From contig NBBA01000002.1 of the NCBI GenBank assembly GCA_002794785.1, positions 2,728,001-2,792,000 of the forward strand: a stretch of DNA of 64,000 nt, read 5' to 3'. This document shows, piece after piece, positions 11,260-30,331 of the stretch (positions are counted from its first letter, which is position 1; each line of letters begins with the position of its first letter). This stretch comes from Coniferiporia sulphurascens (taxonomy: Eukaryota; Basidiomycota; Agaricomycetes; Hymenochaetales; Hymenochaetaceae). A program made the position numbers and the translations under genes. A model generated the notes under the pieces. That model did not search any database, had not been told where the DNA came from, and was given only the letters and a program-made list of their open reading frames with translations.

Positions 11260-14200
11260 CTAGACTTGGGTATCGAACGATAAATCGGAAAAGAAGAAAT
11301 CATTATTTGGTGGAGGAAGGCCCGCTAGGAGTCCGCTAGGTATCTCCACCTTCTCGCCAGAAAGGTCTAAGCATTGGGTCAGCTCAAGTCCTTTATTTCA
11401 AAAGGGTGAGAAATAGCACGCACCAAGTAGTTTGATCTTCAACCCAATCTCCGTGAGGGCCTGCACGAACCCAGCCGTCTCCTGAGTTGCCACATGCCCA
11501 CCATCGCGCCGTAACATGTTGAGCCCATCCGTCCAGTCCGCCCAGCGCGATTGATCCGGCGCAATTTGATCCGCAAGCGAGCCTTCCGAAGTGAGCAGTG
11601 AGAACGAAAGCGGCGACGCCTGCAGCGGCGAGCTTGGCGGCACGTCTAGGTACTCGCGCAGCACGTTTGGCGGCGGCCCACACGTCCCGGTCGCGATCTC
11701 AGTGATCAGCGAGATGTCGAGCCGCTCCGGCAGATCCTCTAGGCCATTCCGCACCTGGAACTTCACAGCGCTATCAACGTAATGGAGGTGTTTCATTCCG
11801 TTGTCTAGCCGCATGAAGCGCCATGGCCGCGTTGGCCGGCGGCTAGCGTCTTTCGCAGATGTCGATGCAAGCGGGATGGCGTTGATAAACCACGCGCCCT
11901 GTAGAAGACATTGTACCCGCTGTTGTCGCACGAACTCATACGATTCTTTGTATAGCTTGGCACGAAGATTTCTGTGGAAAGTATATGTCAGCCGACAAAT
12001 ACAGACGGCAAGGAGTCCCAAGCCGTACCTGACAGGCACCCTACTCAACAAGTCGTCTTCGTTCTCCAATTCCTTCATCTGTCTGTCCCTCACAGCCCTA
12101 TATTCGCTTTCGAGGAAATCGCGCTCGACCTCGTGCCACGCGCGTACGTTCTCCTGTCTAAGCGCGACTTTCACTCTGGGGGGCATGTGATCAGTTATGG
12201 TCGTGTTGAAAATCAAGTACACTCACTGGCTCCGGGCTAATGCCACAACGCGCGCGAAGTCATCAACTGCCGCATTACTTTCATTCCACATCCTGTTGGC
12301 GGCATTACCATGCATAATTAGTCTATATTTGGAGAGGTGCTCGGAATCCGGGTGAAATGGTAACGAACCGCAGGATGAATTGAGTGGTAAGTACGTGAAC
12401 CTTATGGAAGTTAAGGAAGAATGGTTGGAAGGTCGTCGAAGTCGAATCTGCATAGTACGACGGAATCAGCAAAATATGTATGGAAAAAGTACTGAGTTGG
12501 ATGACTCTGGAAAAACGTACAGCCTGGGGCAAATATCTCCCAATACTCGCACAGCAACTCGACGACTTCGTTGGACGCCTTCGCCACCGGACATCGGCGC
12601 TCTTCCGATCTGTTAAGTTGCTCGAGCACGACCTTTGGTGTGTACAAATCCGGCTTAGTTCGTATTAGTGGCATCGGAGCAAAATGAGCGCACTTTAGCG
12701 AACGAATCGGGTCACTCTGTATAAAATGTTTCTGCACACCAAAGCTGGCGCGTTATACAAATTCGTTGAAGCAAAGAGTCCAAAATGGACCTACCAGACA
12801 ATCTAGCCCCAACACGCCGACATTTGCAAACTCTTGCGGGATATCCTCCGTGTCGAAGCCCAATTTACGCCACCTCCGCAGTCCACTTTCGTCGTCAGGA
12901 TCACGTTCCTCCTCGAGCTTGCTCATTTGCCACATATAGCGCAATGAATTAAAATGCTCCAGATTCCCAAGCGGGTCCACAGGCTCGTGTTTGCGGCGTA
13001 AAATAAAACGCACTTCATTCGCTTGGAAATCAAGGATGGAGGACGTCAAGTCGTCGATTACATGCGAGGACATCAAGCGCTAAAGCCCAGCTGAAGTAAG
13101 ATTTACCATGGGATAAATTGAGGTGCGAAGAACATACAACGACCGCCTTGCGAATATTCAGTCTCTCAAGTTCATGCGTGAATTCCTCCCAGTGCGTGTC
13201 CGTGGCGTGCGATAGGAGGGAGTTGATGAACATCATACTTTTAGCCCAATGTCACAATAAAACTTTCCGAATGCATTGAATTTAATTCGCGAACGTACCT
13301 ATTCAAAACCATCAAGCTATCTGCGCTCCCTAAACGGCTTACTATTATCTCCAATAAACCTCTCTCCCTCCTCATCTGCTCCCAGACTACGTCAAATCCG
13401 TATCTATACACACTACCAGGCGGCGCAGCGGGTGGCATGCGACTTGAGGAAGATACAATGGGGCCAGGCTGCGAACGCGGATCCGCCTCGACGAGTTTTT
13501 TGAGGATGGCAGTTGCAGGCCGGCAGACGTTAATGAGCGAATTGGAAGAAGAAAGAATCTGCACGACGACGTGAATGAAGGAGTGATCGAGCGTAGACCA
13601 GCCGTAGTCGAGCTCCATGAGATTTTGCATGGCATTGAGGGCATACTGAGGATTGATAAATACACAAAATTGACAGTCATATGGTGGATGCTACTCACCG
13701 CCAGAGTGTTGCCATGACTAACACCAATTACGTCGATGAGCTCTTTCAGTCCGTCTCTTTGCAAGAATTCGTTCGCAAATTGCTCTTCCTAATCGACGCT
13801 GAGATCCTAGCATTCCACGATGCAAGTTTGCACACTTACCCGGATAAACTTCTGCAGCGAGAAAAGCGTCATACGAACGTTTGTTCTCTCATCCCGAATG
13901 CTCAGCTTCTCGACGATTTCCGCTGCCTCGATGATCGGCGCGCTCACAAGCCTAACCAATTAAAAGATATTCCATGAGTTAAAAAACGACTTTCAGAAGC
14001 GCATAATCGACGCACTTGAGGTTGACCTTCCCCTTGATCTTCTTCCTCAAATTGTCGTCCGTCACTAGTTCGTCCGCCTCGTCTCGCAGAGCGTAAAGGA
14101 CCGGTGGCTCCTTTATCTTCAAATTTAGACATAATTGACGGATAACATCGTCGACAGCGAGCGTCGGCTCGATGCGAGCACGAACGACCGCGCCATCCTT

Positions 14201-14338: not shown

Positions 14339-15669
14339 GGGCCTAGTTCACGATGTGAGTGACTGGGAAAGGACGTGAGCATACAGCCGATTTGATGAAT
14401 TTTCTTAAAAAGGGCGGTTCAGAAAAAGCGATGGATTGTCGTCTAGCATTTCTTGCGAAATTCCGACTGACGTGCAAATATATCAAGGTTCATCACAAAA
14501 GGACCATCAGGAAACGATGGAACGTTGTCCAGATAACGACCAGTGCTTATTGAAACATCATCAACTCACCTGAGCGAGGGTAGACCGTAGTCGAAGGCGG
14601 ACGATGGCGTAGACTCTGGACGCGACCGCCTGGAAAGACAGTGTCAGTAGGCATGACCGGCGTCGTTGGGCGGGACCTTCCCAAAATTGAGCGCGCCAAC
14701 ACCTGCGCTATCTGAAGAAAGACTCACAATATGCGTGAATGCGGGTTTAACAAGGTGAAAATAAGTGGAAGAGACGCGTCGGTCTCGTCAAAGTAATGTC
14801 CACAAGTATACTAGCGGAAAGCTGGAAGCCGTATGTCAAGATAGTAGGGATACGAAGTCTTTTCCCTCAGCTTTGCTCGGGTATGTCGTCGATGGAAACG
14901 GAGGTGTGGATGTTTGCCAACTGCCGTGGCGGGCGAGAGAGCCCTGGGAAATAAAGGGCTGTGTGCGGGTGCTATCCAGTACCGTTTTGTACGTACTCCG
15001 AGTCGGTCCTCCCCGTCGTCAAATTTCCGTTATACATATCCACAAGAATTGCCCAGCGTTATCTCCTCCCGAATTCCAATTCGTTTTACACTAAGACTGG
15101 GCTCTGTGGACATCCTGTAAAAGCGCCTTCATCACGGAAATTAATTAATTTCTGCAGTCAATCCCGTAAATGAAATATTATGGCGTAACACCGGCCGAAA
15201 TACATATTAACAACGTTCCATGCATACAGCCGGTCGACCTGGCGATGAGTGTCTGGAACTTGCTCCTCTCGGTTATATCTTCAGACTCTCTACTAGTACA
15301 CGCGACACAGTAAAAACTAGGGACATGCCTCTGCCGAATAGTCGTCAGGGGATTTTGGATAATACATACAAGTATCTAAGGAGGGCTATCCATAAGACTG
15401 AAAAAGTTCGCTACTTGTACACGTAGAGGATCACAGAAGGAACGATACATCAAATGTAATGAACATGCAAGAACGCGAAGAAACCATCTAATACATCGTA
15501 GGTACGTTACGTTTGAAACTACTCAGCGGCAAGACGTCAGTGAGAGCGAGGCGCGGAAGAACTTGGTGAGGCCCCTGGCTGTTCATCTACCTTGATATGC
15601 CGCTCATATACAAGGTCGCTTGTCCCTGGATAAGGAGCGGTGCGCAGCTCGGAAGTGGTCGGGCCCGGC
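14339..15669. other. Intergenic between ELMO and RBR genes; nothing recognised
   Basis: This 1.3-kb stretch holds the ELMO promoter at its left end and the 3' flank of the first RBR gene at its right. Short frames near 14765-15173 and 15220-15426 show no conserved pattern. I searched it for the missing C-terminal zinc tail of the RBR gene (Gly-Gly-Gly-Gln-Cys and Tyr-Leu-Phe patterns) and did not find it. Confidence 0.55.
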
Positions 15670-16965
15670 TTACACCGAGACCTTGGACCTTGGATGAACC
15701 ATATCAACTACACCCCGCCACGACTTCTTACAAAGCTTCGTCAGTACGCCATCGTCATGCATACCTAGGAGTTCACTCTTCACGAGGTAGTTTCCACGGA
15801 TTCGAAGCTTGCGTGCACCAATGAGACGCAGGAATCGGCTCGTCCCGCCCGTGCACCCACACGTCTTCCATTCCGCCGCGCACAAGTAGCAGAACTGCGC
15901 GCCGCAACGGCAAGACATGTGGTAGCACCCACTGTTGCGTTCAACCAACTGCCGGCAACGCGGACAGCGTTGCCATCCACACGACTGCCCGAGGATGAGG
16001 GCCTTGCGCAGTCCCTTGTCGACCTTGCAGCGGACAGATTCAGCGTGTGCTGGCGCGGTGCAGAGCTCGCATGTTTCCGCATTGCACGAGCTGCATAGTG
16101 CAGGCGTAGGATGCTGCTTGCGTGGACCCAAGAATTTCGCGCACAGCTTGTTAGAGCAGTAAAGACGAACAGGAGTCTCGTATTCGAAGATCCTTGCGCG
16201 ATAGAGTTCTGCGACGTCTCCAGACAAGTCTTTCTCGATGAGGCTCATGGGCACGACTTTCCCACAGCAGCGAGGGGGGAAGCAGTTTTCATCATCGACG
16301 TTCGAAGAAAACATATCTTTAAGGCAGTTGTCTCCATATCTGTGTCCACAGTGAAGCGTGACGCCATTCTCGAGAGCAGACTCCCCACAAACGACACAGT
16401 GCATATTCCTGCCTGGCCTGAAATACATGTCAGGGGCGACCAATGACGCAGAAATAGCCTGTGGTCCTCACTTTACAATTGGCGCGTCATATTCCAACAA
16501 GTTTCTGGGGAGTTCTAGGACTAAGTCCGTAGGTCGACGGTGTCTGTGGTGCGGCCATAGTGGTGGCGACGTTTCTGCAACAACACTTGATTCACCGGTA
16601 GGAGGATTGCACTCCTGAGACGCATTCACCACTTGGAAGCGTTTGTTAAAGAGGTCCCGGACGTCTGCGACCCGTTTGATTGGCGTTGCGGACTGATACT
16701 CCCCCAAGGCATAGCCACGATCGGCATCGTCTAACGAATCGAACTCCTGGAGGGCCGCCTCGGTGAGCAAGGACTCCTGCTTTCCCTTCCCTTTTTCCTC
16801 CGTAAGATCGGGGTACCGACCCTGCTCTCCGCTTGTTCGTACGATTTCCGGGTGGTTGGTATGATAGCCTAGTTCTGCGGACCTCGACCGCTCATCGTTG
16901 ATCCATACTGTTTGCGGCACGGAGGCACTAGAGGAACTGTACTCTGAGCCAGACCACCGACGCAT
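15670..16965 (-). CDS. RBR-type E3 ubiquitin ligase, tail missing (cluster copy 1)
   Basis: RING-between-RING ligases form a thioester with ubiquitin on a RING2 cysteine before transfer to the substrate. Two exons (16965-16472 and 16417-15670) with a 54-nt intron give about 413 residues. After a Ser/Glu-rich N-terminus comes RING1 (CVVCGESALENGVTLHCGH), the IBR (LYCSNKLCAKFLG, CSSCNAETCELC) and RING2 (CPRCRQLVERNSGCYHMSC) with the likely catalytic Cys in GCYHM. It is clearly paralogous to the ligase at 24139-25636. Just after KTCGC, near 15850, the alignment needs one extra base to keep the Asp-Glu of the paralog's PQWDE. Without it the frame runs into an unrelated 50-residue end, and the conserved His/Cys tail is absent. 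It may be a truncated but still catalytic ligase or a decaying copy. The start codon choice is the weakest part of the model. Confidence 0.85.
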
Positions 16966-18064
16966 TGCAAGTTGAGCAGTCGGGGTGCGGGGACCGAGTC
17001 CGAGAGACGAAATGCGTGGAACGGGGGAGTGACGGTAGACGCCTCGCGCTCCTTGGGCGCAGGAGTGCTATTTAAGAGGTATGATGTGATAGACGCTGTA
17101 TTAAATACACGAAGAAGCACAAAACCTATATAGGGGTAAACAACTGATCAAGGAAAGGGCGATTCGCCGTTGTCTGGCTTGAGACCACCGAGTCAAAAAG
17201 AATATAGAACAAAGCGGTACCAGTTCAGTTTCAACGGCTGAGCGTATATCTCTCATTCCACGTTGCGGAGATAGGCGCCTTAGCTTGAGTGACAGGAATA
17301 CTGATCTGTCGTAGACGTGCTGATGTTGAAGCCTAACAAAAGCGAGCGCTGGATATGCGACTTTCAGGGCACCTTCCGCCATCTCGCTTCCCTTGTTCCT
17401 CGCTGTGCACGGCTTATCGACGAGGACGGCGCTGAAATTCCATTCCTAGGACGCCTTCATTGGAGCTGTGCTTGCTAAACAGGGTCTTAATGTCTGGGAC
17501 ACCGGCATACTATTGCGCAACTCAATTGACTGTCTCCAAATCAACATCAGATTTGATGAGTTAGAAAGATATATGTACGTACAGCCTTGCTTGAGAAACT
17601 TACAGGGAATATAATTCGCGGCACCGTAAATACTTGGAGAAGTGAGCAAAGAGCGTGCAGCTGGAACTTGAAGTCACGCGTTTGTAACGTGTAATCAACG
17701 ATCACGCGATTCACGCGCGCTTTCAACGCGTCCCGCAGTCGAATCAGGGCACAACTACACGTCCTTCTCACTGCAGTCCTCCCGTTGGGGTTCAGTTCTG
17801 ATCCTTTCACAAGCCTCGCACGGTTTATTACAAGGAACCGGTCTCTGCGTATTTGGAAACAGGGCGTTTTATTTACACAACAAGACCATCACTACTAATA
17901 AACAACACTCCGGATAATCGGTCTCCTTACGTAGGTGAAGGTGAAGGGTGAATTCGCTTGATTGCCTCGTGTTTCGGACCACTTCAGTCCCTCGCTATTA
18001 ATGCCCTAAGTACCTCTATTTTATCTCACTCTCTCTCTGCACTTTCTCGCATTTCGTTGGACTC
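16966..18064. other. Divergent intergenic region between RBR copy 1 and Smr gene 1
   Basis: This 1.1-kb region probably holds the promoters of the minus-strand ligase and the plus-strand Smr gene. Open frames on the minus strand at 17101-17382 and 17547-17810 show no family pattern. The 60 bases before the Smr ATG are rich in CTCT repeats, a usual 5' UTR feature in fungi. Confidence 0.5.
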
Positions 18065-19766
18065 ATGGGCGAGGATTCAGAAACCAGGCATCTGCGCAAG
18101 GAGCTCGCTCGTCTTCAAACTCATATTGAAGACCAACGTCGTCGGCACTCTACGGAGGTAAAGACACTTCGTCAAGACCTCGACGATGAATACAGATATA
18201 GCAAGGTAAACGCTGTCGGATGAGCGTCGTAAGATGTTTGTTGACACCGTCATGCGCTGGCCCTCAGCGTCTGCGCAAAGAGCTCGATGAGGAGTACGAG
18301 CATTGCGCGCGCTTAAGAAAAGAGCTAGATGACAAGCGTAGACTTATGGACGACATGCGCGACGACCTTGATGACGAGCGTCACTACTCAGAGCAGCTTG
18401 AGCGAAAACTAGACAAGAGAACACGACAGATTAAGAAGCTTGAAGCAGAGCTGATAGCCCTCGAAGACGATTATGCGCTGGCTTATAAGGAACTCAAACG
18501 AATGAACGCGCTTAGAAAGGAGCTAGAGAACGCTAGTGAGTACAATACTCATATATTTGTTGACTTGTTTTAACCTCACGCTCTTCTTAATAGAGCTTCT
18601 TCGTCTATATGAGAAGCAAAAGGTCTCGAAACTTCAGGAAGAGGTCCTGTCCCTACGTGGTCACAGCCGTTCGCCCACGCCTCCCGGTGCACATGCGCCC
18701 GCCTACGCTTCGAGTCCGTCATACGCTCCGACCCCATCATATGCCCCGACTCCATCATATGCTCCGACTCCATCATATGCCTCGACCCCATCATACGCCC
18801 CGAACCCATCGACGCGAGCAACCACGCCCCGTACAGCTACCCCCGAACTGGAACCGGACTATCCTAAAGAGGGCGAAGACGAAGATGAAGACGAGGGAGT
18901 TTCGGCGGAACGGGAGAATGAAGAGGAGGAGGAGGAGGAGGAGGAGGAAGGTTCAGACAGTGAAGTCGATGATGAACACTCCGTTTCGGGCGAGGGGGAA
19001 CCTGAGGCCGAGGAAGTCGACGATGCTCCAGGGCAGAAATTACGTAGCATGGCGACTCGCGAAGGACGTCTTGCAGATCGTGAATACCAGCGAGCAAGGG
19101 ATGCATACGCCTCCGGCGACAAAGCCTTTGCGAAACAGGTTAGGAACTCACTCAAGTCTTTACACACTTATTGATAATCGTCCTGTGTAGCTCAAAGAGA
19201 GAGGCATGAAACATCGCGACGAGATGAAGAACTACCTCCGGATGGCCGCTGCTGAGATTTTCAATCATCATAACCCGGAATACCATTCAAACCCGAGCAC
19301 TCGTGACAAGATGGATTTACATCATCTGTACGTGAGCGAGGCTAAGGAGTTCGTCGAAAACCATATTGCGATTTGTCGTACGGGTGGAATTCGGCGCACG
19401 GAGATCATTTGTGGGCGTGGAAACCACAGTGCGGGCGGTGTCGCGAGACTGCGGCCGGCGATTCTCGAATACCTTGCGACGCAACGAGACGTCTCTGTTG
19501 ACTCCCACGATACGAACCCAGGCCGCATAGTAGTGCTTTTCTCGGACTCATGGACGCCCGAAGACGATGACATCCAGCTGAAGAGCAGGTCACGCCCACA
19601 GCACGCGGAGATCGATGACGTCTTTGAACAAGGACGGTCACGTCTGAGAGCTGCGACGAAGACTGCATTCGAGATCAGGCAGGGCCTGGAAGAGATAGAG
19701 CAAGGGGTCAGTGCGATGAGAATTAAGTCCGAAGGGAGGAGAGGCTCTAGCAAGACCGCAAACTGA
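18065..19766 (+). CDS. Coiled-coil, acidic, DUF1771-Smr protein (Smr gene 1)
   Basis: Four exons (18065-18205, 18268-18535, 18594-19138, 19191-19766) join in frame to 509 residues. Residues 1-160 form a long charged coiled coil with repeated LRKELD-type units. Next come five SYAPTP-like hexapeptides (about 178-207), an acidic stretch with a run of Glu (about 215-270), DUF1771 (about 286-352) and an Smr domain (about 358-430). The Smr motifs are intact: MDLHHL near 359 and CGRGNHSAGG near 393. Smr domains of the Cue2/N4BP2 type cleave RNA, and the DLH and GxGxHS residues are the active-site signatures. The tail after residue 430 is charged and disordered. The gene is the first of three tandem relatives and the only one with the coiled coil, which suggests oligomerisation. 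The substrate is unknown. Confidence 0.9.
18719..18808 (+). repeat. Coding minisatellite, five 18-bp units
   Basis: Five back-to-back 18-bp units encode SYAPTP, SYAPTP, SYAPTP, SYASTP and SYAPNP. They sit in the disordered linker of Smr gene 1 between the coiled coil and the acidic stretch. Unit-to-unit differences are mostly third-position changes, so the array is likely to vary in copy number between strains. Confidence 0.93.
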
Positions 19767-20055
19767 AACTAGAAAGCCGATGAAAATTTACCGTACACTC
19801 TTAAGCTTCCACTCATATGCTTCCTATGCGCTCCCGCTTACTCTTAACCGGAAGAGATGTACAGCTATTGATATATGTTGCTACTAATATGCATTATGAC
19901 TCTGATTATAATTTGGAATTATGGTAATTATGTATTTATAAATGAATTCGCACAGTGAAAAGATGAATGTTGGATTTTTAGTCGTTGGTGCGGTCGGCAG
20001 TAACAGATCCATTTTACTTGTGAACCCGTTCAGAGTGCGCACTAAATTAGTCCGA

Positions 20056-20273
20056 TACTATCGTATGACCCCTATTACAAAGTCACATTTTCAGACAAAA
20101 ATTGGGTTTCCAGCCTCCACATCATGGGTATAGGATCGAAAAAGTCCTTCTGAACTGTTGTACAGTATATAGATCTTTCTTGCCACTTTTTTCAACGAAA
20201 TTTAGATATGTTTCCTATTCAAGGCCGATTTTTGTTTTGGAAGTGACTTTGTAAAAGGGGTCATACGATAGTA
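20056..20273. repeat. Inverted-repeat (hairpin or MITE-like) element
   Basis: The 31-bp arm at 20056-20086 (TACTATCGTATGACCCC...) is the reverse complement of 20243-20273 with a single mismatch. The similarity continues inward for about 20 bp at lower identity. The 156-bp interior is AT-rich and has no open frame. Size, terminal inverted repeats and position in an intergenic space fit a miniature inverted-repeat transposable element, but no target-site duplication could be fixed by eye. Confidence 0.75.
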
Positions 20274-20537
20274 CGTGTAAGCCACGAAAAGTTTATAAAA
20301 CATGACGAATGCTGACTAACAAAGATCGACATATCGAGCTCGCCAAATAAGGAAACTTCCCATAGCTTTACGGCGGAGTTCGCATACACTTGAATTCCGA
20401 TTATTGTCGAGGCTCAAGAAAAATCATTTATGGATGACTCGAAGTGAATATTCTTGATGAATACTACTCAGTGGAGTCATAAATAATAATATATATAATA
20501 ATAACGGCCTTCCCATCACGTGACACCGCCTTCTAGG

Positions 20538-20544
20538 TATAAAA
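20538..20544 (+). promoter_or_regulatory. TATA box of Smr gene 2
   Basis: A perfect TATAAAA lies 136 bp upstream of the ATG at 20680, inside GGTATAAAAGG. It is the clearest TATA element in the window, and a TATA-driven promoter fits an inducible rather than housekeeping gene. Confidence 0.65.
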
Positions 20545-20679
20545 GGCCCACGTTTGCGTGGTTCACTGGTTACACACTAACCACCACCATCTACTTGCTA
20601 GTACCTATCGGATCTGCCAAATACGGGCTACTTTTTGTTTCCAATAGTTATATTTCTGATCTTGCTTATCTACATACAC

Positions 20680-21468
20680 ATGTCTAACTCTAAAATCATC
20701 AATGGAGGAGAGTCTTGCGTGCACAATGATGGCCCCACGGACACTGACCGTGAGAATGTCGCCGCGCAACAACAACAAGGAATAGGGGTGATGGTGCTGG
20801 ACACTTTCGATGAGCCGGAAACTGGATCTGAGGTCGCTGATCAATCGGAGGCCGAGTCTGACGGACTGTCTGGACCTCATTTGCGCTGTCTTGCGCGTGA
20901 GGCTGAAAACAGAGTAAGGACCCATCGCAGGTGCCTTCGACAGGCTGTGGATGACAAGAGCGACGCCGGACAAATTAAAATGGTGCGTATATGCTGATAC
21001 TTTGTTCCCTGCTGACTGCAGTTTTCTTTTCAGATAAGTAAGCGAATCGCTCGCGCTCGCGCGGCTGGTAGACGCTATCACCATTTGGCCGCGCTCAAGA
21101 TATTTCGTCAATACAATCCACGGTACTATGACCTCGCAACTGATAGTGGTAAATTCGCTACTATAGACCTGCACCGTCTATATGCACCAGAGGCCATGGA
21201 GCGTCTTGAAAGACACATATTTCATTGTAAGAGCTCTGGTTGCAGGACCACAAAGGTTATATGTGGTCAAGGGAAACACAGTGTGGGTAGGGTGCCACGC
21301 ATAAAACCGGCAGTTGAAGTATATCTTGCCGGCCAAGAGGGCATAGAGTATGTTGTGAACGAAAACAACCCCGGAAGCATCGCCGTCCGCTTCATTGAAG
21401 ACGAATTAGTCCTCAGGACAGCGCATGAAGGTAGGTGTCAGGCATCGCTGTACAATCTTATTCATTAG
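20680..21468 (+). CDS. DUF1771-Smr protein (Smr gene 2)
   Basis: Two exons (20680-20982, 21034-21468) encode about 245 residues. The N-terminal 80 residues are polar and acidic with a Gln run. A DUF1771-like helical segment follows and is split by the intron. The Smr domain carries IDLHRLY (Asp about residue 146) and CGQGKHSVG (about 178-186), so both active-site signatures are kept. Compared with Smr gene 1 it lacks the coiled coil and acidic insert. The intron sits at the same place relative to the Smr motifs as in Smr gene 3: the DLH Asp is 45 codons into exon 2 in both. The start is the first ATG downstream of the TATA box. RNA cleavage or binding is inferred from the domain only. Confidence 0.87.
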
Positions 21469-22555
21469 TTTGGGCATTGTACAAAGAAGTGCCAGCCATG
21501 GAAGGTGACCCAGAACAAAACTTATAAAGCCAACAAGATACGGCGATGGGAGCAACTAGAAACCCAGGACTTCGCAGGCTCATGCTAATAATGCAACGTA
21601 TGTGACCATTTATAACTCTCGAAGTCCAGCAGCTCTGCCAATGATACCCAGACACCTGCACTAAACTATGGGAAGTATTTTATGCAACTGCCATGGAATT
21701 CTTTTACATGGCAGACTCCAACAGCTGCCAGATAGCTAGTAATCATTCATGATATAGCTCCCTTTGGTGATGGCACAAATGTACATCTATGATGTGCAAG
21801 AGTTTCTATGCAATGTCCGTGTCCAGACAATAGTTGGCTCACATATATGGCGGAATCCGTGGGCTAAGCCAGATTCTGGAACCTTACCATGCAGAGTGCT
21901 AGCGAACGCTATGACTTATCCGGGACCATGGCATTCTCTCCAATTAATGGATGTGTCTGACGAACGAGGAAGATACAGGACGATCTGGCGTCGATCGGTA
22001 AATCACCGTCACCGTTGGCGTAGGATCTGCGGATCAGCGTTTGCGATGAACAGTAGTACTGTACATGTAGCCCGCGTGCCTGACTTGAAGGTAATTTTCG
22101 ATGATTCGAGGAGTCGTAGTACTATGTTATGTTTCCAAACCATTTACCCCTAGCCTGCTACCATAACACCCCAATCCTATCAGCCCACGTCATGTCAGCA
22201 CCTTCACACGCGTATATAAATGCACATACGCACACACAAGTACAAACAACCATGTATCTGCTCGGAGGATCCGATTCCCATGTTACCACTTCCTACACTA
22301 GTTCTAAATCTGCTCAGTTTTTATTTATTAAAGCTGCCTATCGGCACGATGTCTTACATCCACTCCAAACGGTATTGCTGACCAGTGACGTAACGAGCTT
22401 ACGATGGCATTTGCCGCGGCTGGTATCTGCGTGGTCGGTGCACACTGCAGCAACGTGCTAATTATACCCGAACACCCATCAGTCGCGGACATCCCCCGGG
22501 TCTTTTTTCTTTCCTACCAGGTCTCATTGCTGCTCACTCTGCTAAGAGAACACAG
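21469..22555. other. Intergenic between Smr genes 2 and 3, with TATA box and upstream ATG
   Basis: TATATAAA at 22213-22220 lies within a likely promoter for Smr gene 3, 336 bp before its ATG. An upstream ATG at 22252 opens a 69-codon frame ending at 22461 with no family pattern. It may be an upstream open reading frame in a long leader, or the leader may contain an intron ending near CCTACCAG at 22520 or CACAG at 22555. No other gene is supported between 21469 and 22200. Confidence 0.5.
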
Positions 22556-23348
22556 ATGTCCAGCATTACGCTCGTCGTCGATGGGGGCTCCTACCTGTGC
22601 GAGGGTAGTCGGAAGCGGAAACGGTTCATGGACGCAGATGAAACGGCATATGAAAAATCTGAGGCCGCATCGAGGTTCAACGTATTACGGGACAACAGGC
22701 TGAAGATTTACGCCTCTGACGACCTACTCGGGTCCCGCTTACGCCGATTCGCACAAGATGCCGAGGGAATCGCGGAGGATCTCGCAGAGCAGTCTTACCA
22801 GGCTAAGACCTCTGGCGATATGGAACAGTCAGATTGGGTACGCCCACCTCATACTATCTCTTATTCACTCCACTATGCGTTCTGCTGACTGCAAAGATCC
22901 TTCTCAGCTCTATGACCTCAGACTCAGCGCTTCCAAGATTGGCAAATGCTATCACCAGCTTGCCGCCCGAGAGATCTTCCGTCGGCGTAATCGTAATTAC
23001 TTTGGTAATACGCTCGACGGAAGTAACCTCGGCATTATGGATTTACACCACCTGCGTATACGCGAGGCAGAGACGTATGTCAAGGACCATATTTTATCCT
23101 GCAAGGATGCTGGCATCAAGACCACCAGGATTATATGCGGTAGAGGGATCCATAGCGTGGGCGGAATACCGCACATGCGGCGTGCGGTAATGAGATATCT
23201 TGATGGAGAAGAGGACATCGCAAATTTTGTGGACAGGGACAATCCAGGGCAAGTCGTGGTCCACTTCCTGGAAAACATAGAAATCCAAAACAGGAAGGCC
23301 ATAAGAGCCGCGTACGAAGGCACCGACGAAAGGGCCAGAAGATACTGA
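22556..23348 (+). CDS. DUF1771-Smr protein (Smr gene 3)
   Basis: Two exons (22556-22837, 22908-23348) join in frame to 240 residues. The short N-terminus contains a basic KRKR patch, a possible nuclear signal. A DUF1771-like segment spans the intron (LAARE, IFRRRNRNY), and the Smr domain has MDLHHLRIREAE (Asp about 139) and CGRGIHSVGG (about 171-180). Spacing between the two Smr signatures is 33 codons, as in the other two copies, so the core is under constraint while the flanks are free to change. It is the third plus-strand copy in a row and faces the second RBR ligase gene across 790 bp (convergent). Confidence 0.87.
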
Positions 23349-24138
23349 GACCAGTCGATTTTTGTCATCGTCGCGATACATCTACAACCGTTTATCGGCA
23401 CACGGAACCTCGTCAAATCATTCCAGACTCAACTACGGAGCACGCAACTATTCAAGAATATTATAGCCCCCATTAAATTAGCAAGTTTTAGGTTCGAAAC
23501 CGGAAGATCACCCGTCTAGCACGCACACGTTTATTTTTAAAGCCAAGGAGCGTTATATCATGGTACAGCAGAACCTTATCCCATACAAATGGTAGTTTCC
23601 CTTCTCTCATATCATCCTGCACTTTTTCAATTCCATCACATCCCGTACACACATATACAGACGTTTGTTTCCTAAATATACGATAGCATCGAATTTATTC
23701 CCGTTTGTATCCAAGTCTGAATGCGCATATACTTGCGGCCCCACTTTTGAAGATGAGCCTGCCTGAACTTCAGTGATTATTGTAGAAGTTCGAGCTCGAG
23801 GTCGGCTGTCGGAGCTAGAAAAAGCTTCTCATTATTCTTTCTTGTTGTATGCGCGCTCGAGTTCTCCCGCTCGATTATCTGCTGGTTCAACGAAATGCTT
23901 AGTAAAGAAGCGCACTCGTCAACGCCGCGAGTTGCTGAAAACCAACAATTATGTCCGAATTACCTCGGGGCCAACAAAAAGACTGTAAGCCATCGTTCGC
24001 CCAGAATGGGTTGGATGAGACCGATTTGAGTGGTAGAATCCTAAGCCTACAAGAAGGGTTACCGAAGTCACCCAAATACTCCAGTGTATTGTCCCTACAG
24101 GCTTATTCTAAACAATGTACGTAGTAATGCTATTCATA
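23349..24138. other. Convergent intergenic space between Smr gene 3 and RBR copy 2
   Basis: 3' flanks of both genes. A GGTTCGAAACC at 23491-23501 resembles a pol III B box but has no partner A box. No gene recognised. Confidence 0.5.
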
Positions 24139-25636
24139 TCATATCCTGTTCAATTTGCAACGATTACAAAGCATTAGCCGACAGCCTATGCAACTCTGCA
24201 GGAGAAAAATGAACAACGACATCCATCGCAGATTTCAGTAATTGAATTAAACTTACAAACAGGTACGCAGGGGGGTTGTGATGGCAGAAATCACACTGTC
24301 CACCGCCACGCCTGAACACAAAGTTCTGGTGCGCACAATCGTGATTCGTGCGGAGGTTCGCCACCTCTCTATTAACAAGATCGAAGAAGTTCCTCTCGTT
24401 TCCACCTGCATTCTCCGGCATCCTTTGTACGCGCTGTTCTGCGGCGAAAATTAGCCTTCCCTCATCCCACTGGGGGCAGGTACAGGTTTTCCAGGTTGCT
24501 GCACACAAATAGCAGAACTGGGTCCTGCAGCGACAAGTCATGTGATAACAGCCGATATTTAATTCCACGAGCTGTCTGCACCCAGGACATCGCTGCCATC
24601 TGTTTTCCCGTCCCAGAGCAAGGACCGCCTGTACTGCATCATCGCTCTTACATGGTGCTTCCTTCGGATGACCTAGCTCAGAACACAGAGCGCAGGTCGA
24701 ACTGTAACATGCTGGACAAACAACATTGGACGCGGCATCGCCCCTCGGGCCCAAGAAACGACTGCATGCCTTCTTCGAACAATACAGGCGGACCTGTGTA
24801 GAAAATTCAAGGGATTTTTCCTCGAAGAGCTTGAGCGTGGATGCCTTTAGATACGCTTTTACCTCATCCAATGGTATTTCTTGCCTGCAACAGCGAGGAG
24901 GGAATAGCGACTCGTCCAAAGTCGTCGCCGTGAATAATTCGATTATACAACCCTCGTCGTAATGATGTCCACAAGGCACTTTGATAGTTGGGCCGCGGAT
25001 AGGTTCCATGCATACTATGCAATTGTGTCTCTCCCTAGTATCATCATTTGAGCAACAATACACACGTATACCTCTTAAACATTGCTCTTACCTAGCATAA
25101 ACATCAAGTCGTGTAGATTCAACAGGGCCTAACAAACTTGAAGAGCTTGTCACTTGTGCAAGCAGTTTCCAGAGTCGCGCAAATGTTGGAGAGAGTCCCG
25201 TCGAGGATTCCGCATGTTTAGGGTTGGTACGCGGGTCAGATGTAATAGACAAAGTAGATGGATTGGTTGGGTGGACTCCTGTCGGTGATTCAGGTCTCGA
25301 TGCTAAATCACGGTCCTCCCGCTCCCGGCATTCGACTTCCGTATGCTCCTCCGGAAGGGAATCGTCCGATTCTATTGCAGCCTGTATGCTGCGAGCAAAC
25401 TCCGCGTCACTGATACTTGTCAGAACGGCCGCTGCATCTTCAGCGAAAAGGTCGAGGGCGTATTCCGCATCCGTCTTGCTCGTTCCCTTTCCCTTGCTGT
25501 TGCGTCTGAGCTCTCTTATGTCTTCGAGGCCTAGACGGTAATAGCTACCAACGACGCGAGGATCATTTTCGGTGTCGTGGTGGTTATCGGGAGGCTCAGA
25601 GGTGAGCCTGAGCGATTCCAGGTCAAGGGGATCCAT
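24139..25636 (-). CDS. RBR-type E3 ubiquitin ligase, full length (cluster copy 2)
   Basis: Three exons (25636-25092, 25034-24257, 24195-24139) with 57- and 61-nt introns give 459 residues. The N-terminal 180 residues are acidic, Ser/Thr-rich and contain DAEYALDLFAED- and DAEFARSIQAA-type segments seen in many basidiomycete RBR proteins. RING1 begins CIVCMEP (about 187). The IBR shows LYCSKKACSRFLG and CPACYSSTCALC. RING2 shows CPGCRQLVELNIGCYHMTC, with the catalytic Cys expected in GCYHM. A conserved tail has HDCAH, GGGQCDFC and, after the last intron, a CxxC pair (CIGC, CNRC). Without that small last exon the tail would end wrongly. Substrate and partner E2 are unknown. A TATAAG on the minus strand at 25703-25708 may serve as its TATA element. 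Confidence 0.93.
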
Positions 25637-26306
25637 GCAGCGGTGCCCTTGTGTGCGAAACTGGGGATCAGGTCTCTACACTTAATGCGTCTCCCCGGGG
25701 ATCTTATACCTGTTCTAAGCTTTCGGCATCACTACATCCATCCACTGAGAATCATATCAGGAAGACGGAGCTTCGACTGTACTAGGGTTTAACAAAACGA
25801 GGCGATTCAACGTCGTGCGGCCATGCCGTGCAAAACCTAATATCAAAGAGCAAGGAGACGGATAGCATAGTGGGTATTCTGTGGAGATCAACCAGCCGAT
25901 ATCACAAAAATCAGCAGCTCGAGTGTCTTTATGAGAAACGAATGATTGAAATATTACCGAACGCGCGACACGATGCAATAGGCGACGGCCAAATACGCAC
26001 ACACACATATAAACAGTTCATACTGCGGTAAACGGCATTATATCTGTATTTTTATGAACATTAAGTATCCGGTGAAAAACAGTCCGATGACATAAAAGGC
26101 AGAGGTGCGATGTGATGCGATGTGAAAAACAACTGTAAGGTAATCGTATGACGGAAGCATGTCCGATGATCGATGTGAAGAACAATTGTAGGTTGTATTA
26201 ATGATCAAGTATTTATAAGAAGACGCCTGATAGTGAGTAGATCAGCTGCTGGGACGGGAAGGAAAACATCTAAGCTATTATTGCGAAATAGAACTCCAAG
26301 GGTAAA
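25637..26306. other. Intergenic with an imperfect direct repeat
   Basis: Two related units are seen: 26118-26140 (GATGTGAAAAACAACTGTAAGG) and 26171-26193 (GATGTGAAGAACAATTGTAGG), each near a GTCCGATGA copy (26081 and 26161). They differ by a few substitutions and look like an old tandem duplication of about 55-80 bp. No gene is supported here. Confidence 0.6.
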
Positions 26307-27412
26307 TCAATTTGAGGTCGTGACTCGAGTCGAGTCGTCGTCCCTCGATAACCTAATATCCTGGCCCTCTCTGACTATAGTTGTTCCCCTCTGTGCAGAC
26401 TCGTCTTCCGAAATCTCCCTCCACGCATTCGTCCAAAGGACCCTCTCCAATTTAGGGAGTCCTTGTGCCAGGATGCGCGTGGCGGAATCTTCTCTACAAG
26501 CGACCGCATTGTGGTCGTACGTTTTTGTGCAGGTCACACAGTTGAAATACTCTCGGTCGTGCGGCACAGTGACAGTGTTCTGCATTGTAGCAGCACGGTG
26601 CACGTTAAGTTCGTGGAGAGCAATAAGTGTTCGCAAGTCGCGCTCATCGTCGAGTGCCATGTGGATGGAAATAACGCGGAGATTCCGCGAGCCAGACAGA
26701 CAGCTGGCGAGGTTGGTCTGAATGCATGTCATGTTAATTACCACATGAACTCAGGATACAAAGAAAACCACATACAGCAAAATCATCGGGACTTGAGATG
26801 CGAAATGAGCAGAGGTCCAGAACACTCCTCGTGCCAGTCAGTGACCACTCTTTCGGGCCCTTGAGAAATTCTCGCGCGCCTAGGCGTAGCTCTACGAGGT
26901 TGGGAAAACTAATGGGAACGTTGAGTAAAAAGCGCCCGTCCGGATAGATCCTGAAATCCAGACGCCGAAGGGTGTTCGCAAAGGACAAAGATTGTAAATC
27001 CAAGATGGTAAGCGAAGGTTCAGGAGAACATATTGACAAGGATTTCAGTTGTGAATAATCCGAGAGGTTTTCGTGAAACGTTTTCGTGGACAATAGCCGT
27101 TTTGGTAAAGGTTCTAGTATTTCTAGATACCTGTCAATGATTCCAGACCATTCGTTAGATATGAAAGCAGGAACTAGCAGGGTGTAAAACGTACTGCACC
27201 ATCCGACAAGGGTTACTGAGAAATACAAAATGATCTGTGCTGCCCACGATATTTTCGCATCGTACGGCGTCTACCACAGCTCTGAAATGGGAAGACGATT
27301 TTGCGAATCCTTCAACGCAGTCAAGGTTGTCGCTGTGGGGATTAAAACTCGAATCCGGCCATGAAGTGACCGCAATTCTGATAATCTGGATCCAGACCTC
27401 GGTTGGAAACAT
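26307..27412 (-). CDS. F-box-like / leucine-rich protein, frame broken near 27227
   Basis: The product starts MFPTEVWIQIIRIAV, a short F-box-like helix, followed by SFNPHSDNLDCVEGFAKSS, which matches the second such gene at 63440. A region with leucine-rich-repeat character follows (SFANTLRRLDFRI, SFPNLVELRLGA), then a 58-nt intron (26718-26775) and a last exon ending at 26307. Between the first exon and the LRR part the frame changes. The shift coincides with an A4 run on the plus strand at 27227-27230, and one base less there would make the protein continuous. A very short intron was considered, but no pair of canonical sites keeps the frame. F-box proteins recruit substrates to SCF ubiquitin ligases; the target is unknown. 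Confidence 0.7.
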
Positions 27413-27997
27413 GGAAGTCGTCTATAGTGTATGGCGGCTCGATGTTACTTTGTTTCGAGGGTTAGGACGGATACAGGATAAGAGTTGAACGATGGAGAAC
27501 CGGAGTGAGGAGGGCGAAGGGTGTGCGGAAACGTTCATAAGTACTGCAAAAGCGTAAAGCCATTATAATCTACGTAGGGAAACCGACTACCTCGGCGAGT
27601 GCGGTGGTAGAACGCACACAAGTTGTCGCCGAGGGCGAGTGAACGTTAAGTAGTATTATCTAATCTGGACTAATGAAGTTCGGAACCGCGTCGCTCCGTT
27701 GCCGGTACTTGCTTCAAGTTGCTTGCGAACGACACACTCTCAACTACATATACAGGTACAAGCGTCTTTGACAAAGCTTTTTCCGTCGATACGTGCCGGA
27801 GCCTTCGCCAGATAATTAATTCTAAAGTTGGACGTAAGTGGCTGGCTGAAAGGTATACTGAATCATCAATTGCCAGCCTTTCAGCTGCACTCTGCCAGCC
27901 TCAATCCCATCGCTCCTCAAAATGGGACATCACACTTATCTTTTCCTTAGTTTCTCTATATCTGCTTTCACTTTGCTAAACCTCCGCACGCTCCTTT
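27413..27997. other. Divergent intergenic region
   Basis: This 585-bp region separates the minus-strand F-box-like gene from the plus-strand KEN-motif gene and presumably holds both promoters. Nothing else recognised. Confidence 0.5.
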
Positions 27998-30331
27998 ATG
28001 TCTCAACTTTGTTCTCTGCCACAGCCGATCCGCGACCCAGTGTCCGGAAAGACCTATATTGCCATCCCCGCGCCGCCTTTCATCCTCACTCACAATGGTA
28101 CCGGGACATCCCAATATTCGGGTATAAACAGTGCACCTGGATTTGTTTATGTCGAACATAAAGCGGCACCACCGCTGCAGAGAATGTTTACGCCGGAGCG
28201 GAGCGAGCTGCCCAAGCGTAAACTGTCCATTAACGAATGGATGGTACGTCTGATGTGTCTATCTCCCTCTCATCGTTGGATTTTACTTATGCCAATGAAC
28301 CAGGTAAAGCACCGCCCAGCCCAGCCTCCGCCCGGCCATATTCCATGGACAGGTCAGGTTCCGACACTGTCGGTGGATGGCTCTCTCGGCGACATTACTT
28401 CGGCCACTCCTACGCGGGGCGCTCGTCCTAGCTTGTTTTCTATCGCACTTGACTCCACTTCGACACTCGAGATTTCTTCAATGAGTAGTGGAGATAGCCT
28501 CCTTAATGGTTCTCTCCCTTCGACACGCTCATCAATCTGGTCCGCGGGAGTATCTCCACCGTTCATAGCCTATGCAAAAACTGTAAAGCCATTATCGTCT
28601 TCCCCACCAACCGCCTGTGCCTCTAGGCTTCGCTCGGCTCCAAAGAGTAAGCGTTACACAACCTTCTTACCTGCATCTGGCCATCGCGAAGCCCTAGTTC
28701 TAGAAGGTTGCTCTGCCCCCAAGAAGGCAGAGAATGTCGAACCACTAAATACGAAAGCCGGATCGTCTGGAGTAAGTTATGCTCCGAAGGGGACTCAGTT
28801 GCTATCCCAGATTGAAAATCTTGACGCCTTTTTCTCCAATGGTCTTAAGAAGATGGCCTCTTCGATGCGGCATCTTGACGAGGAGAAGGAGAGGCTCGAA
28901 ACCCCATCTTTAGTCGTGTCTACATCCACAGCTGTTCTTCCCGTCTCTTTGGAGTCCTTTGCAGACATAAAAAATGTAACGCCTCCCCTTGCTATGCGTC
29001 GCGGAAAGAAGGTCCCCATTGCACTTAAGATTGACAATACCCTCACTGCAAATACGCTTGATTATCCTGAAGTCCCAACGGCGTTCCGAGGATCCCCTGG
29101 TTCTTGTCTCGAGATTTTTCCAGATGCTCCCAGCTATCCGACCCTCGTACTGGACACGAAGATGACTGCTGAGCAAATGATCTCTAGCCTCCGCTCCCAG
29201 GTAGACAACTTCTACCCTAGGCAGCCCCTTATCTCCGCCACTTTTGCAGATCAGTGTACAGACGCCGAGAAGTGGCTCGAGGATGAACTTGCATGGGACT
29301 CGGATAAAGACAACTCCTCTGTAGAGTGTTCACTTGCTCAACGTAGCATTGAGACGGAGGTAAACTCAGTCGACGCTAGCGAACTTTCGGCATCTTCACT
29401 GCCAGTCCCATCGGCCCTAGGTCTTAGGAAATCCTCCATTGCTAGTCTTCGTGCTCAGAGTCTTCGCCCTGTTTGGGCCACAATGCCCGATCGCACAAAT
29501 ACGCTCAGCTGTAGCGAGGTCAAATTCCCTTCGGAAAACCTGAAGGACTGGAACGCGCTGGCCTGGCCTCGTGGGTCCATTCTTTCCGACGACACACGAC
29601 CAGTGTTGAAAGAAAGTGTGGAGAAGAAGGTGCGCTTCTCAGCCTCCCCACCGTTGACTATCCCACACAACATTCTTGAGATGGGCGAGTGGAAGGGTGT
29701 CCGCGCAGCTCCACGTCCGAAGACGGCTGCGCCCAACGTGATTGTGTCACCTACAAAAAGGAAACCGCCCCCGTCAGTTTGCAGCGTCAAGCCACCTATC
29801 GCGAAAATTCCTCTCCAGTCGACACCTAAGAAGATAGCACCAGTGACTCACAAGTCGCTACAAACTAAGCCTGCTTGCATTACGACGCCTCGGACTGTAT
29901 CATCCACTTCCCCCGCTTTGGGGAAAGCAACTGCTTCAGGAAAGATGCGCAGTCTGTCAACCGGCTCGACGCTTACCGACTCGCCGCTGAGAGTCTCACC
30001 GTCCATCCGACGGCGCGCGTCAGAGATTGGCCCGTTTTCACGCATCTCATCCCCCAAACCCGCTACCGATGTGAAGATAGGTCTCCCTGAGCTAGCAGCG
30101 CGTCCGTTCAGCTTCAGTACGAGAGACAGTCGTTCGCTCAAAGTTTCCGTAGCAGGGATAAGTTTTGGAAAGCGGCGGAGCTTTGATTCGGATAAAGAGA
30201 ATCAGGACCGCCGCGACCCGATGTCCGTGGGCCCTACCACGCAGAAGATGGAACAAACCCAGAAAAAACTCAAAACCAATCGAACACGTAGCCTGCCATT
30301 TCAAAATGTGTTGAGTCGCTTGAGAGGGTAA
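27998..30331 (+). CDS. Unknown protein, 757-777 aa, Ser/Pro-rich, with KEN motif
   Basis: A single long open frame starts at an ATG followed by SQLCSLPQPIRDPVSGKTYI. A 60-nt segment at 28244-28303 begins GTACGT and ends CAG. It is therefore a probable in-frame intron, so the protein is 757 residues if spliced and 777 if retained. No known domain was recognised. The N-terminal 80 residues look ordered; the rest is Ser/Pro/Thr-rich and basic at the end. A KEN box (SDKENQ) lies near residue 732, with several SP/TP sites around it. That combination is typical of cell-cycle proteins degraded by APC/C, but KEN occurs by chance too. It may be a basidiomycete-specific regulatory or cytoskeletal protein; no function can be claimed. 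Confidence 0.85.
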   Translation: MSQLCSLPQPIRDPVSGKTYIAIPAPPFILTHNGTGTSQYSGINSAPGFVYVEHKAAPPLQRMFTPERSELPKRKLSINEWMVRLMCLSPSHRWILLMPMNQVKHRPAQPPPGHIPWTGQVPTLSVDGSLGDITSATPTRGARPSLFSIALDSTSTLEISSMSSGDSLLNGSLPSTRSSIWSAGVSPPFIAYAKTVKPLSSSPPTACASRLRSAPKSKRYTTFLPASGHREALVLEGCSAPKKAENVEPLNTKAGSSGVSYAPKGTQLLSQIENLDAFFSNGLKKMASSMRHLDEEKERLETPSLVVSTSTAVLPVSLESFADIKNVTPPLAMRRGKKVPIALKIDNTLTANTLDYPEVPTAFRGSPGSCLEIFPDAPSYPTLVLDTKMTAEQMISSLRSQVDNFYPRQPLISATFADQCTDAEKWLEDELAWDSDKDNSSVECSLAQRSIETEVNSVDASELSASSLPVPSALGLRKSSIASLRAQSLRPVWATMPDRTNTLSCSEVKFPSENLKDWNALAWPRGSILSDDTRPVLKESVEKKVRFSASPPLTIPHNILEMGEWKGVRAAPRPKTAAPNVIVSPTKRKPPPSVCSVKPPIAKIPLQSTPKKIAPVTHKSLQTKPACITTPRTVSSTSPALGKATASGKMRSLSTGSTLTDSPLRVSPSIRRRASEIGPFSRISSPKPATDVKIGLPELAARPFSFSTRDSRSLKVSVAGISFGKRRSFDSDKENQDRRDPMSVGPTTQKMEQTQKKLKTNRTRSLPFQNVLSRLRG

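What the first reader, a model, noticed from the sequence alone, without database searches (positions are those of the whole stretch)
15670..25636. RBR ligase - Smr - Smr - Smr - RBR ligase cluster
Two paralogous RBR E3 ubiquitin ligases on the minus strand bracket three tandem DUF1771-Smr genes on the plus strand. All three Smr proteins keep the DLH and GxGxHS signatures. In yeast no-go decay, the E3 Hel2 marks collided ribosomes and Cue2, an Smr endonuclease with ubiquitin-binding CUE domains, cleaves the mRNA. A locus pairing ubiquitin ligases with stand-alone Smr proteins could be a lineage-specific RNA-surveillance or defence module against viruses or mobile elements. The physical grouping is seen; the functional link is a hypothesis.
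Basis: partly seen in the sequence, partly recalled or inferred. Interest (0 to 1): 0.85.

Follow-up and report, generated by a model that had tools for sequence, protein, structure and literature searches.

The report
Clustered Smr nucleases and ubiquitin ligases
In a wood-rot fungus, two ubiquitin-ligase genes really do flank three RNA-cutting-type (Smr) genes, and the site belongs to a larger local expansion of nine Smr genes; this looks like lineage-specific gene duplication, and a shared function of the two kinds of gene is possible but not shown.

Summary
Observation confirmed. Five intact genes lie at 15670-25636: RBR1(-), Smr-A, B, C(+), RBR2(-). DUF1771 passes Pfam's cut-off only in Smr-A. 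The genome fits Coniferiporia sulphurascens. New: the trio is part of a nine-gene Smr array, all on the + strand, over 89 kb (9 of the genome's 12 Smr matches). Six more lie 66-85 kb downstream; at least four (D, F, G, H) begin with a membrane-anchor-like helix, shared by the three C. weirii orthologues found. The nine group with Hymenochaetales and environmental homologues, apart from ordinary fungal Smr proteins. RBR1 is a fast-diverging relative of RBR2 that keeps the core zinc and catalytic residues. Linkage evidence is mixed: RBR2 and Smr-A orthologues share one 1.24-Mb scaffold in Phellopilus (chance about 2%), but two relatives show Smr-A with no RBR2-like hit listed. Best reading: a real cluster made by local duplication of neighbours, with Ypl199c-like Smr endonucleases; coupling to the RBR ligases is possible but unproven. 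The Hel2-Cue2 analogy fails at family level: the ligases are not Hel2-type and the trio lacks CUE domains.

The parts
15670..16965 (-). RBR1, 413 aa, exons 16965-16472 and 16417-15670; RING1-IBR-Rcat with catalytic Cys; lacks the C-terminal Cys-rich tail of RBR2
   Evidence: gene model; Pfam IBR; Cys/His comparison; long branch in tree
18065..19766 (+). Smr-A, 509 aa, 4 exons (18065-18205, 18268-18535, 18594-19138, 19191-19766): coiled-coil-like N-part (by eye), PSYAPTPS repeats, acidic stretch, DUF1771, Smr
   Evidence: Pfam; repeats; orthologues in Phellinidium, Phellopilus, Fomitiporia
20680..21468 (+). Smr-B, 245 aa, exons 20680-20982 and 21034-21468; Smr domain, no DUF1771 hit, no hydrophobic N-terminus
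22556..23348 (+). Smr-C, 240 aa, exons 22556-22837 and 22908-23348; Smr domain, no DUF1771 hit, no hydrophobic N-terminus; exon 2 model matches solved Smr domains
24139..25636 (-). RBR2, 459 aa, exons 25636-25092, 25034-24257, 24195-24139; RING1-IBR-Rcat plus C-terminal Cys-rich tail; short branch in the tree
   Evidence: Pfam; homologues; tree; model and fold search
16966..18064 (.). 1.1-kb interval between the divergent RBR1 and Smr-A start codons (possible shared promoter region, inferred)
   Evidence: gene models; no second copy of 17068-18064 found in the genome; no expression data
20056..20273 (.). MITE-like element with 31-nt terminal inverted repeats between Smr-A and Smr-B
26307..27421 (-). 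Gene next to RBR2, F-box-like by eye only (Pfam found no family at E<=0.01 in two of its frames); its only other match in the genome is at C2:2791452-2792512

Best explanation
The five genes are a real local cluster made by duplication of neighbours. An RBR2-type E3 ligase and a Smr-A-type nuclease-like protein were probably already linked in an ancestor of Coniferiporia and Phellopilus (inferred). In the Coniferiporia line the Smr gene gave B and C beside A and, 66-85 kb away, an array of mostly membrane-anchored copies; the RBR gene gave RBR1 (inferred). Conserved A and RBR2 keep the ancestral role; B, C and RBR1 diverged fast while keeping their catalytic motifs. Mechanism: the Smr proteins most likely cut mRNA at stalled ribosomes as Ypl199c does (inferred from family and motifs), the coiled-coil, soluble and membrane-anchored forms placing this activity in different parts of the cell (inferred). 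RBR1 and RBR2 are probably active RING-HECT-hybrid ligases passing ubiquitin through the Rcat cysteine (inferred from residues). The neighbourhood needs no functional coupling of the two families.
For: 9 of 12 Smr matches of the genome lie within C2:2747314-2836696, all on one strand. The nine local Smr proteins plus Hymenochaetales and environmental homologues form one group (22 rows, 99/99; tree unrooted, drawn at the midpoint) apart from the other 87 rows, with D-H (93/88) and an A-type part (99/97) within it. An intron at the aligned place, phase 0, is in A, B, C, D, F, G, H. C. weirii has D, F and G orthologues as M0805_004608, 004606, 004605 on contigs of equal length (75,963 b), in matching (reversed) order if tags follow position. 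RBR1 and RBR2 are the only two matches to RBR1 in the genome at E<=0.001 and fall in one six-row group with C. weirii, Phellopilus and two environmental proteins, 100/98. RBR1 keeps the core RING1-IBR-Rcat Cys/His. Another family next to RBR2 also has exactly two places, both in this region, so local duplication is general here. The Smr-C exon 2 model (pLDDT 90.2) matches N4BP2 Smr 2vkc best (E 1.5e-5).
Against: RBR2 and Smr-A orthologues share one 1,238,035-b scaffold in Phellopilus, which leaves room for selected linkage. Kept catalytic motifs in fast-diverging B, C and RBR1 are also what a diversifying functional module would show. The Smr tree rests on 126 columns with long branches meeting (B, C, I), and RBR1's branch is 1.91, so the order of duplications is unsure. 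No DNA of a second species could be read. Endonuclease and ligase activity are untested.
Confidence: 0.58

Rival explanations
1. A functional RBR-Smr module: the ligases mark ribosomes, stalled nascent chains or foreign translation complexes with ubiquitin, and the neighbouring Smr proteins cut the mRNA; copies diversify because the targets (viruses, mobile elements) change.
For: RBR2 and Smr-A orthologues on the same 1.24-Mb scaffold of Phellopilus (1.238 of 56.7 Mb, about 2% by chance; genome size from Table 1 of PMC10410303, passages). Own-genome adjacency 1-2% by chance. Fast divergence of B, C, RBR1 with catalytic motifs kept. RBR1 and Smr-A are divergently oriented with 1.1 kb between. 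The ligase RNF14 acts at stalled ribosomes (passage of PMC12868832).
Against: No CUE or other ubiquitin-binding domain among the Pfam hits of A, B, C at E<=1. RBR1/RBR2 are not Hel2-like and show no RWD. Smr-A is present in Phellinidium pouzarii and Fomitiporia mediterranea with no protein of theirs among the 120 listed of 350 RBR hits (gene-model, assembly and length limits leave room for misses). Of 4 named species with listed hits in both families, 1 has them on contigs of equal length. The second, larger Smr cluster has no IBR or RBR1-like match beside it.
Confidence: 0.2
2. Mostly decaying copies: A and RBR2 are the working genes, while B, C and RBR1 are duplicates under relaxed constraint on their way to being lost.
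For: B, C, I and RBR1 sit on long branches (0.80, 0.98, 2.14, 1.91); DUF1771 is not recognised in B and C; RBR1 has lost the C-terminal Cys-rich tail; my model of Smr-G meets an in-frame stop, and a MITE-like element and an integrase fragment sit in the arrays.
Against: B, C and RBR1 have intact frames, canonical introns and the core catalytic or zinc residues; random decay would have broken some.
Confidence: 0.15
3. Chance neighbours: the RBR and Smr families each expanded locally and merely happen to lie side by side; the shared Phellopilus scaffold is a coincidence.
For: Local duplicates of three unrelated families in one region; 2% events are not rare after the fact; the stretch between the two Smr clusters holds unrelated genes (for example ORC2 and SEC6).
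Against: Two separate observations of about 1-2% each.
Confidence: 0.2

Closest known systems
Yeast Ypl199c (DUF1771-Smr), family 2 Smr
   Same: Smr domain with DxH and GxGxHS, no CUE hit; Smr-A has DUF1771 in front; Ypl199c is described as an endonuclease of nonstop decay, found near Rps3 (passages of PMC8583833)
   Different: Smr-A adds a coiled-coil-like part and repeats; B and C give no DUF1771 hit; D, F, G, H have an N-terminal hydrophobic helix; the nine fall outside the group of other fungal Smr proteins
Cue2 / NONU-1 (CUE-Smr no-go decay endonuclease); also SppC, a septal-pore protein with CUE, SMR and DUF1771 (passage of PMC10023807)
   Same: Smr domain; Cue2's D348 and H350 (passages of PMC6598757) correspond by motif to the DxH kept here
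   Different: no CUE hit here; a CUE-Smr gene of this genome is at C2:2078909-2080992 (by eye)
N4BP2 (B3BP) Smr domain, PDB 2vkc
   Same: best sequence match of the Smr profile (1.9e-18) and best fold match of Smr-C exon 2, including part of the stretch before the Smr domain
   Different: N4BP2 is a much larger protein with other domains (recalled)
RBR ligases ARIH2, ARIH1, RNF216
   Same: RING1-IBR-Rcat order and catalytic Cys line up; the profile matches ARIH2 at 3.7e-16; folds match RNF216, ARIH1, ARIH2
   Different: the alignment weakens past Rcat and the C-terminal Cys-rich tail has low model confidence; the listed relatives are mostly Agaricomycete proteins named hypothetical or RBR-type

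Membership tests
RBR E3 ligases | RING1-IBR-Rcat in order | tested here: met
   IBR above cut-off, two stretches, in both; RING models below their cut-offs, but the profile aligns to ARIH2 over positions 12-263
RBR E3 ligases | catalytic Cys in Rcat and zinc-binding Cys/His | tested here: met
   Cys at position 162 and the other conserved Cys/His of positions 5-186 are the same in RBR1 and RBR2; position 162 lines up with the Cys of ARIH2's 'GGCNHM' (that this Cys is catalytic is recalled)
RBR E3 ligases | ubiquitin ligase activity | not testable with these tools
   needs an assay
Hel2/ZNF598 | RING ligase without IBR/Rcat (recalled; Hel2 called a RING ligase in a passage of PMC8583833) | tested here: not met
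   both proteins carry IBR and Rcat
RNF14/Itt1 RBR | N-terminal RWD domain (recalled) | tested here: not met
   no RWD hit in RBR2 at E<=1 or RBR1 at E<=0.01
Ariadne RBR | C-terminal Ariadne domain | tested here: inconclusive
   alignment past Rcat is weak; the last 30 residues of the model have pLDDT 55-59
Ypl199c-type DUF1771-Smr | Smr domain above Pfam cut-off with DxH and GxGxHS | tested here: met
   3 of 3
Ypl199c-type DUF1771-Smr | DUF1771 in front of Smr | tested here: inconclusive
   met in A (47.2 bits); no hit in B and C, where the aligned region and intron position remain
Ypl199c-type DUF1771-Smr | endonuclease activity at ribosomes | not testable with these tools
   inferred from family only
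Cue2/NONU-1 | N-terminal CUE domains | tested here: not met
   no CUE hit in A, B, C at E<=1
conserved RBR-Smr gene module | co-localisation beyond chance in related genomes | tested here: inconclusive
   1 of 4 named species with listed hits in both families has them on contigs of equal length (Phellopilus)

The most novel reading that the evidence does not exclude
RBR ligases and Smr nucleases duplicated together as a diversifying ubiquitin-tag-and-cut system of Hymenochaetales, in which soluble (A-C) and membrane-anchored (D-I) Smr endonucleases destroy stalled or foreign mRNAs in the cytosol and at an organelle surface, with RBR1/RBR2 supplying the mark.
Probability: 0.1. Interest if true: 0.8.

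Novelty: new variant of a known kind. Interest (0 to 1): 0.4.

Why it matters
Stand-alone Smr proteins are usually one or two per fungal genome (recalled). A nine-gene array with coiled-coil, soluble and membrane-anchored forms gives natural variants for asking what recruits such nucleases to ribosomes without CUE domains and whether they work at membranes. If the RBR-Smr linkage proves conserved at gene level, it would point to a second ubiquitin-to-mRNA-cleavage route.

Tried and rejected
Hel2-Cue2 analogy: rejected at family level (no CUE hit, not a Hel2-type ligase). RNF14-type RBR: not met (no RWD hit). A shared repeat or duplicated promoter within 14500-28000: at 24 nt or longer only the 18-nt-period coding repeat of Smr-A, one 26-nt CA-rich pair and a MITE-like inverted repeat were found; no second copy of 17068-18064 was found. 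Bacterial promoter scan of the RBR1/Smr-A interval: nothing, and not meaningful in a fungus. Orthologues of Smr-B and Smr-C: of the 12 hits, 10 are in the tree and none groups with B or C. Smr-A in C. weirii: not among the hits, but candidates over about 521 aa are not considered, so absence is not shown. Papers: 'Smr domain'+'RBR' and 'Smr domain'+'Agaricomycetes' listed 0 papers; 'Smr domain'+fungi+transmembrane listed 5, unrelated by title; RNF14+ribosome+RBR+RNF25 listed 0; RBR+'ubiquitin ligase'+Basidiomycota+expansion listed 2, not read. Any 'not in print' claim rests on these searches of open-licence papers only. The second structural look covers model residues 1-189, so the C-terminal tail is untested.
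Full report
WHERE IT IS. The window is C2:2728001-2792000 of a 39,347,566-base genome in 31 contigs. Table 1 of PMC10410303 (passages seen) lists Coniferiporia sulphurascens FP133613 at 39.4 Mb, 31 scaffolds, GC 50.45%; the 139.5 kb that I joined has GC 50.8%, and RBR2 is 82.7% identical (364 of 440) to a Coniferiporia weirii protein. The name is therefore inferred, not given. Coniferiporia belongs to the Hymenochaetaceae.

THE OBSERVATION. Gene models: RBR1 (-) 16965-16472, 16417-15670, 413 aa; Smr-A (+) four exons in 18065-19766, 509 aa; Smr-B (+) 20680-20982, 21034-21468, 245 aa; Smr-C (+) 22556-22837, 22908-23348, 240 aa; RBR2 (-) 25636-25092, 25034-24257, 24195-24139, 459 aa. The last exon of RBR2 was placed by comparison with the C. 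weirii protein. Pfam gives Smr in 3 of 3 and IBR in 2 of 2; DUF1771 only in Smr-A.

A LARGER ARRAY. The genome has 12 Smr matches. Nine lie in C2:2747314-2836696, all on the + strand: A, B, C in the window and six (D-I) at 2818-2837 kb. A search with Smr-C finds the same nine first, then two weaker ones elsewhere. Outside are a CUE-Smr gene, an ordinary Ypl199c-like gene, and a large Smr protein (labels by eye). A DUF1771 gene at C2:2405648 carries a DLHGL motif but, by eye, an altered second motif. In D, F, G and H the protein starts with a hydrophobic helix (mean hydropathy over 17 residues 1.92-2.60), as does a possible start of I (1.96); A, B and C have none. No start exon of E was modelled. 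The three C. weirii orthologues found have the helix too (2.13-2.58), with tags M0805_004605, 004606, 004608 matching G, F, D in reversed order on contigs of one length, 75,963 b. In H the basic residues follow the helix, which by the positive-inside rule (recalled) would place the Smr domain in the cytosol. Among the 92 hits, 13 have a hydrophobic N-terminus by the same measure, several of the form M-GL-D-LLALVKVLCG; the ordinary Ypl199c-like protein of this genome scores lower, 1.36. So membrane association may be older than this array.

ORIGIN. In a tree of 109 Smr rows (12 own, 97 of 104 hits) the nine local genes with Hymenochaetales and environmental homologues form a group (99/99) apart from other fungal Smr proteins. 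D-H with the C. weirii proteins are one part (93/88); A with Phellinidium, Phellopilus, Fomitiporia and environmental proteins another (99/97), to which B, C and I attach on long branches. The program warns of few columns and of long branches meeting, so the place of B, C and I is unsure. An intron at the aligned place and phase is in A-D and F-H. Smr-A is 72.1% identical to the Phellinidium, 69.0% to the Phellopilus and 57.7% to the Fomitiporia protein over the aligned residues, while B and C are 36-38% identical to A. In a tree of 83 RBR rows (both RBR proteins and 81 of 120 listed hits), RBR1 (branch 1.91) and RBR2 (0.07) fall in one group with C. weirii, Phellopilus and two environmental proteins (100/98). 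RBR1 and RBR2 are 34.4% identical (135 of 392). At the 25 conserved Cys/His of positions 5 to 186 RBR1 has the same residue; in the tail it has lost His 235 and Cys 247 and 250.

IS THE LINKAGE OLD? I used contig length as a fingerprint of a contig. The Phellopilus orthologues of RBR2 (DFH11DRAFT_1214153) and Smr-A (DFH11DRAFT_1725250) are both on a contig of 1,238,035 bases. In a genome of 56.7 Mb and 696 scaffolds a random gene falls on that scaffold in about 2% of cases. In C. weirii RBR2 (186,279 b) and the anchored Smr genes (75,963 b) are on different contigs, which says little because in the window's genome RBR2 and D-G are 64-76 kb apart. Paxillus rubicundulus (25,210 and 51,744 b) and Ceratobasidium sp. 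395 (3,643 and 16,398 b) have the two families on different contigs; their Smr proteins are of the ordinary type. So 1 of 4 named species with listed hits in both families shares a contig. Phellinidium and Fomitiporia have Smr-A, but none of their proteins is among the 120 shown of 350 RBR hits; their assemblies and the length limits of the search leave room for misses. Within the genome, adjacency of the kind seen arises in 1-2% of random placements, with the family pair chosen after the fact.

VERDICT. A true and lineage-specific cluster, larger than reported, best explained by local duplication of linked genes. The proposed ubiquitin-to-nuclease coupling is open, with weak support from one other genus and no direct evidence. 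Papers were seen as listings or passages only; none was read whole.

Noticed in passing
C2:2817738-2836759 of the same genome (loci L023-L025), outside the window: Second Smr cluster (D-I); at least D, F, G and H start with a membrane-anchor-like helix, shared by the three C. weirii orthologues found. My model of Smr-G meets an in-frame stop: broken gene or wrong exon, not settled.
   Followed up: partly
window 20056-20273: MITE-like element with 31-nt terminal inverted repeats; 40 scored places across the genome, this one included, most near full length, a lower bound.
   Followed up: partly
window 26307-27421 and C2:2791452-2792512: Gene beside RBR2 (F-box-like by eye, no Pfam family found) with one other match in the genome, 42-43% identical over the pieces.
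   Followed up: partly
proteins P0131, P0136, P0148, P0166, P0170-P0172, P0179, P0197 (one search list): Several Ypl199c-like Smr proteins, some from named basidiomycetes, begin with a hydrophobic helix, often followed by CG; perhaps a general membrane attachment.
   Followed up: partly
window 20602-20679: The frame just upstream of the Smr-B start codon encodes a hydrophobic stretch (FLFPIVIFLILLIYIH) without its own ATG, perhaps a relic of the anchor found in D-H.
   Followed up: no
C3:186607-189372 (L029): Another Smr gene with a long N-terminal part (810-aa open frame), grouping with an Irpex lacteus protein (P0208).
   Followed up: no
C2:2819580-2820128 (L024): Integrase-core (rve) fragment between Smr-D and the later copies; Pfam hit below cut-off.
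   Followed up: no
window 11401-13690 (-): Exons with PH_12 and ELMO armadillo domains, an ELMO-like gene next to the cluster.
   Followed up: no
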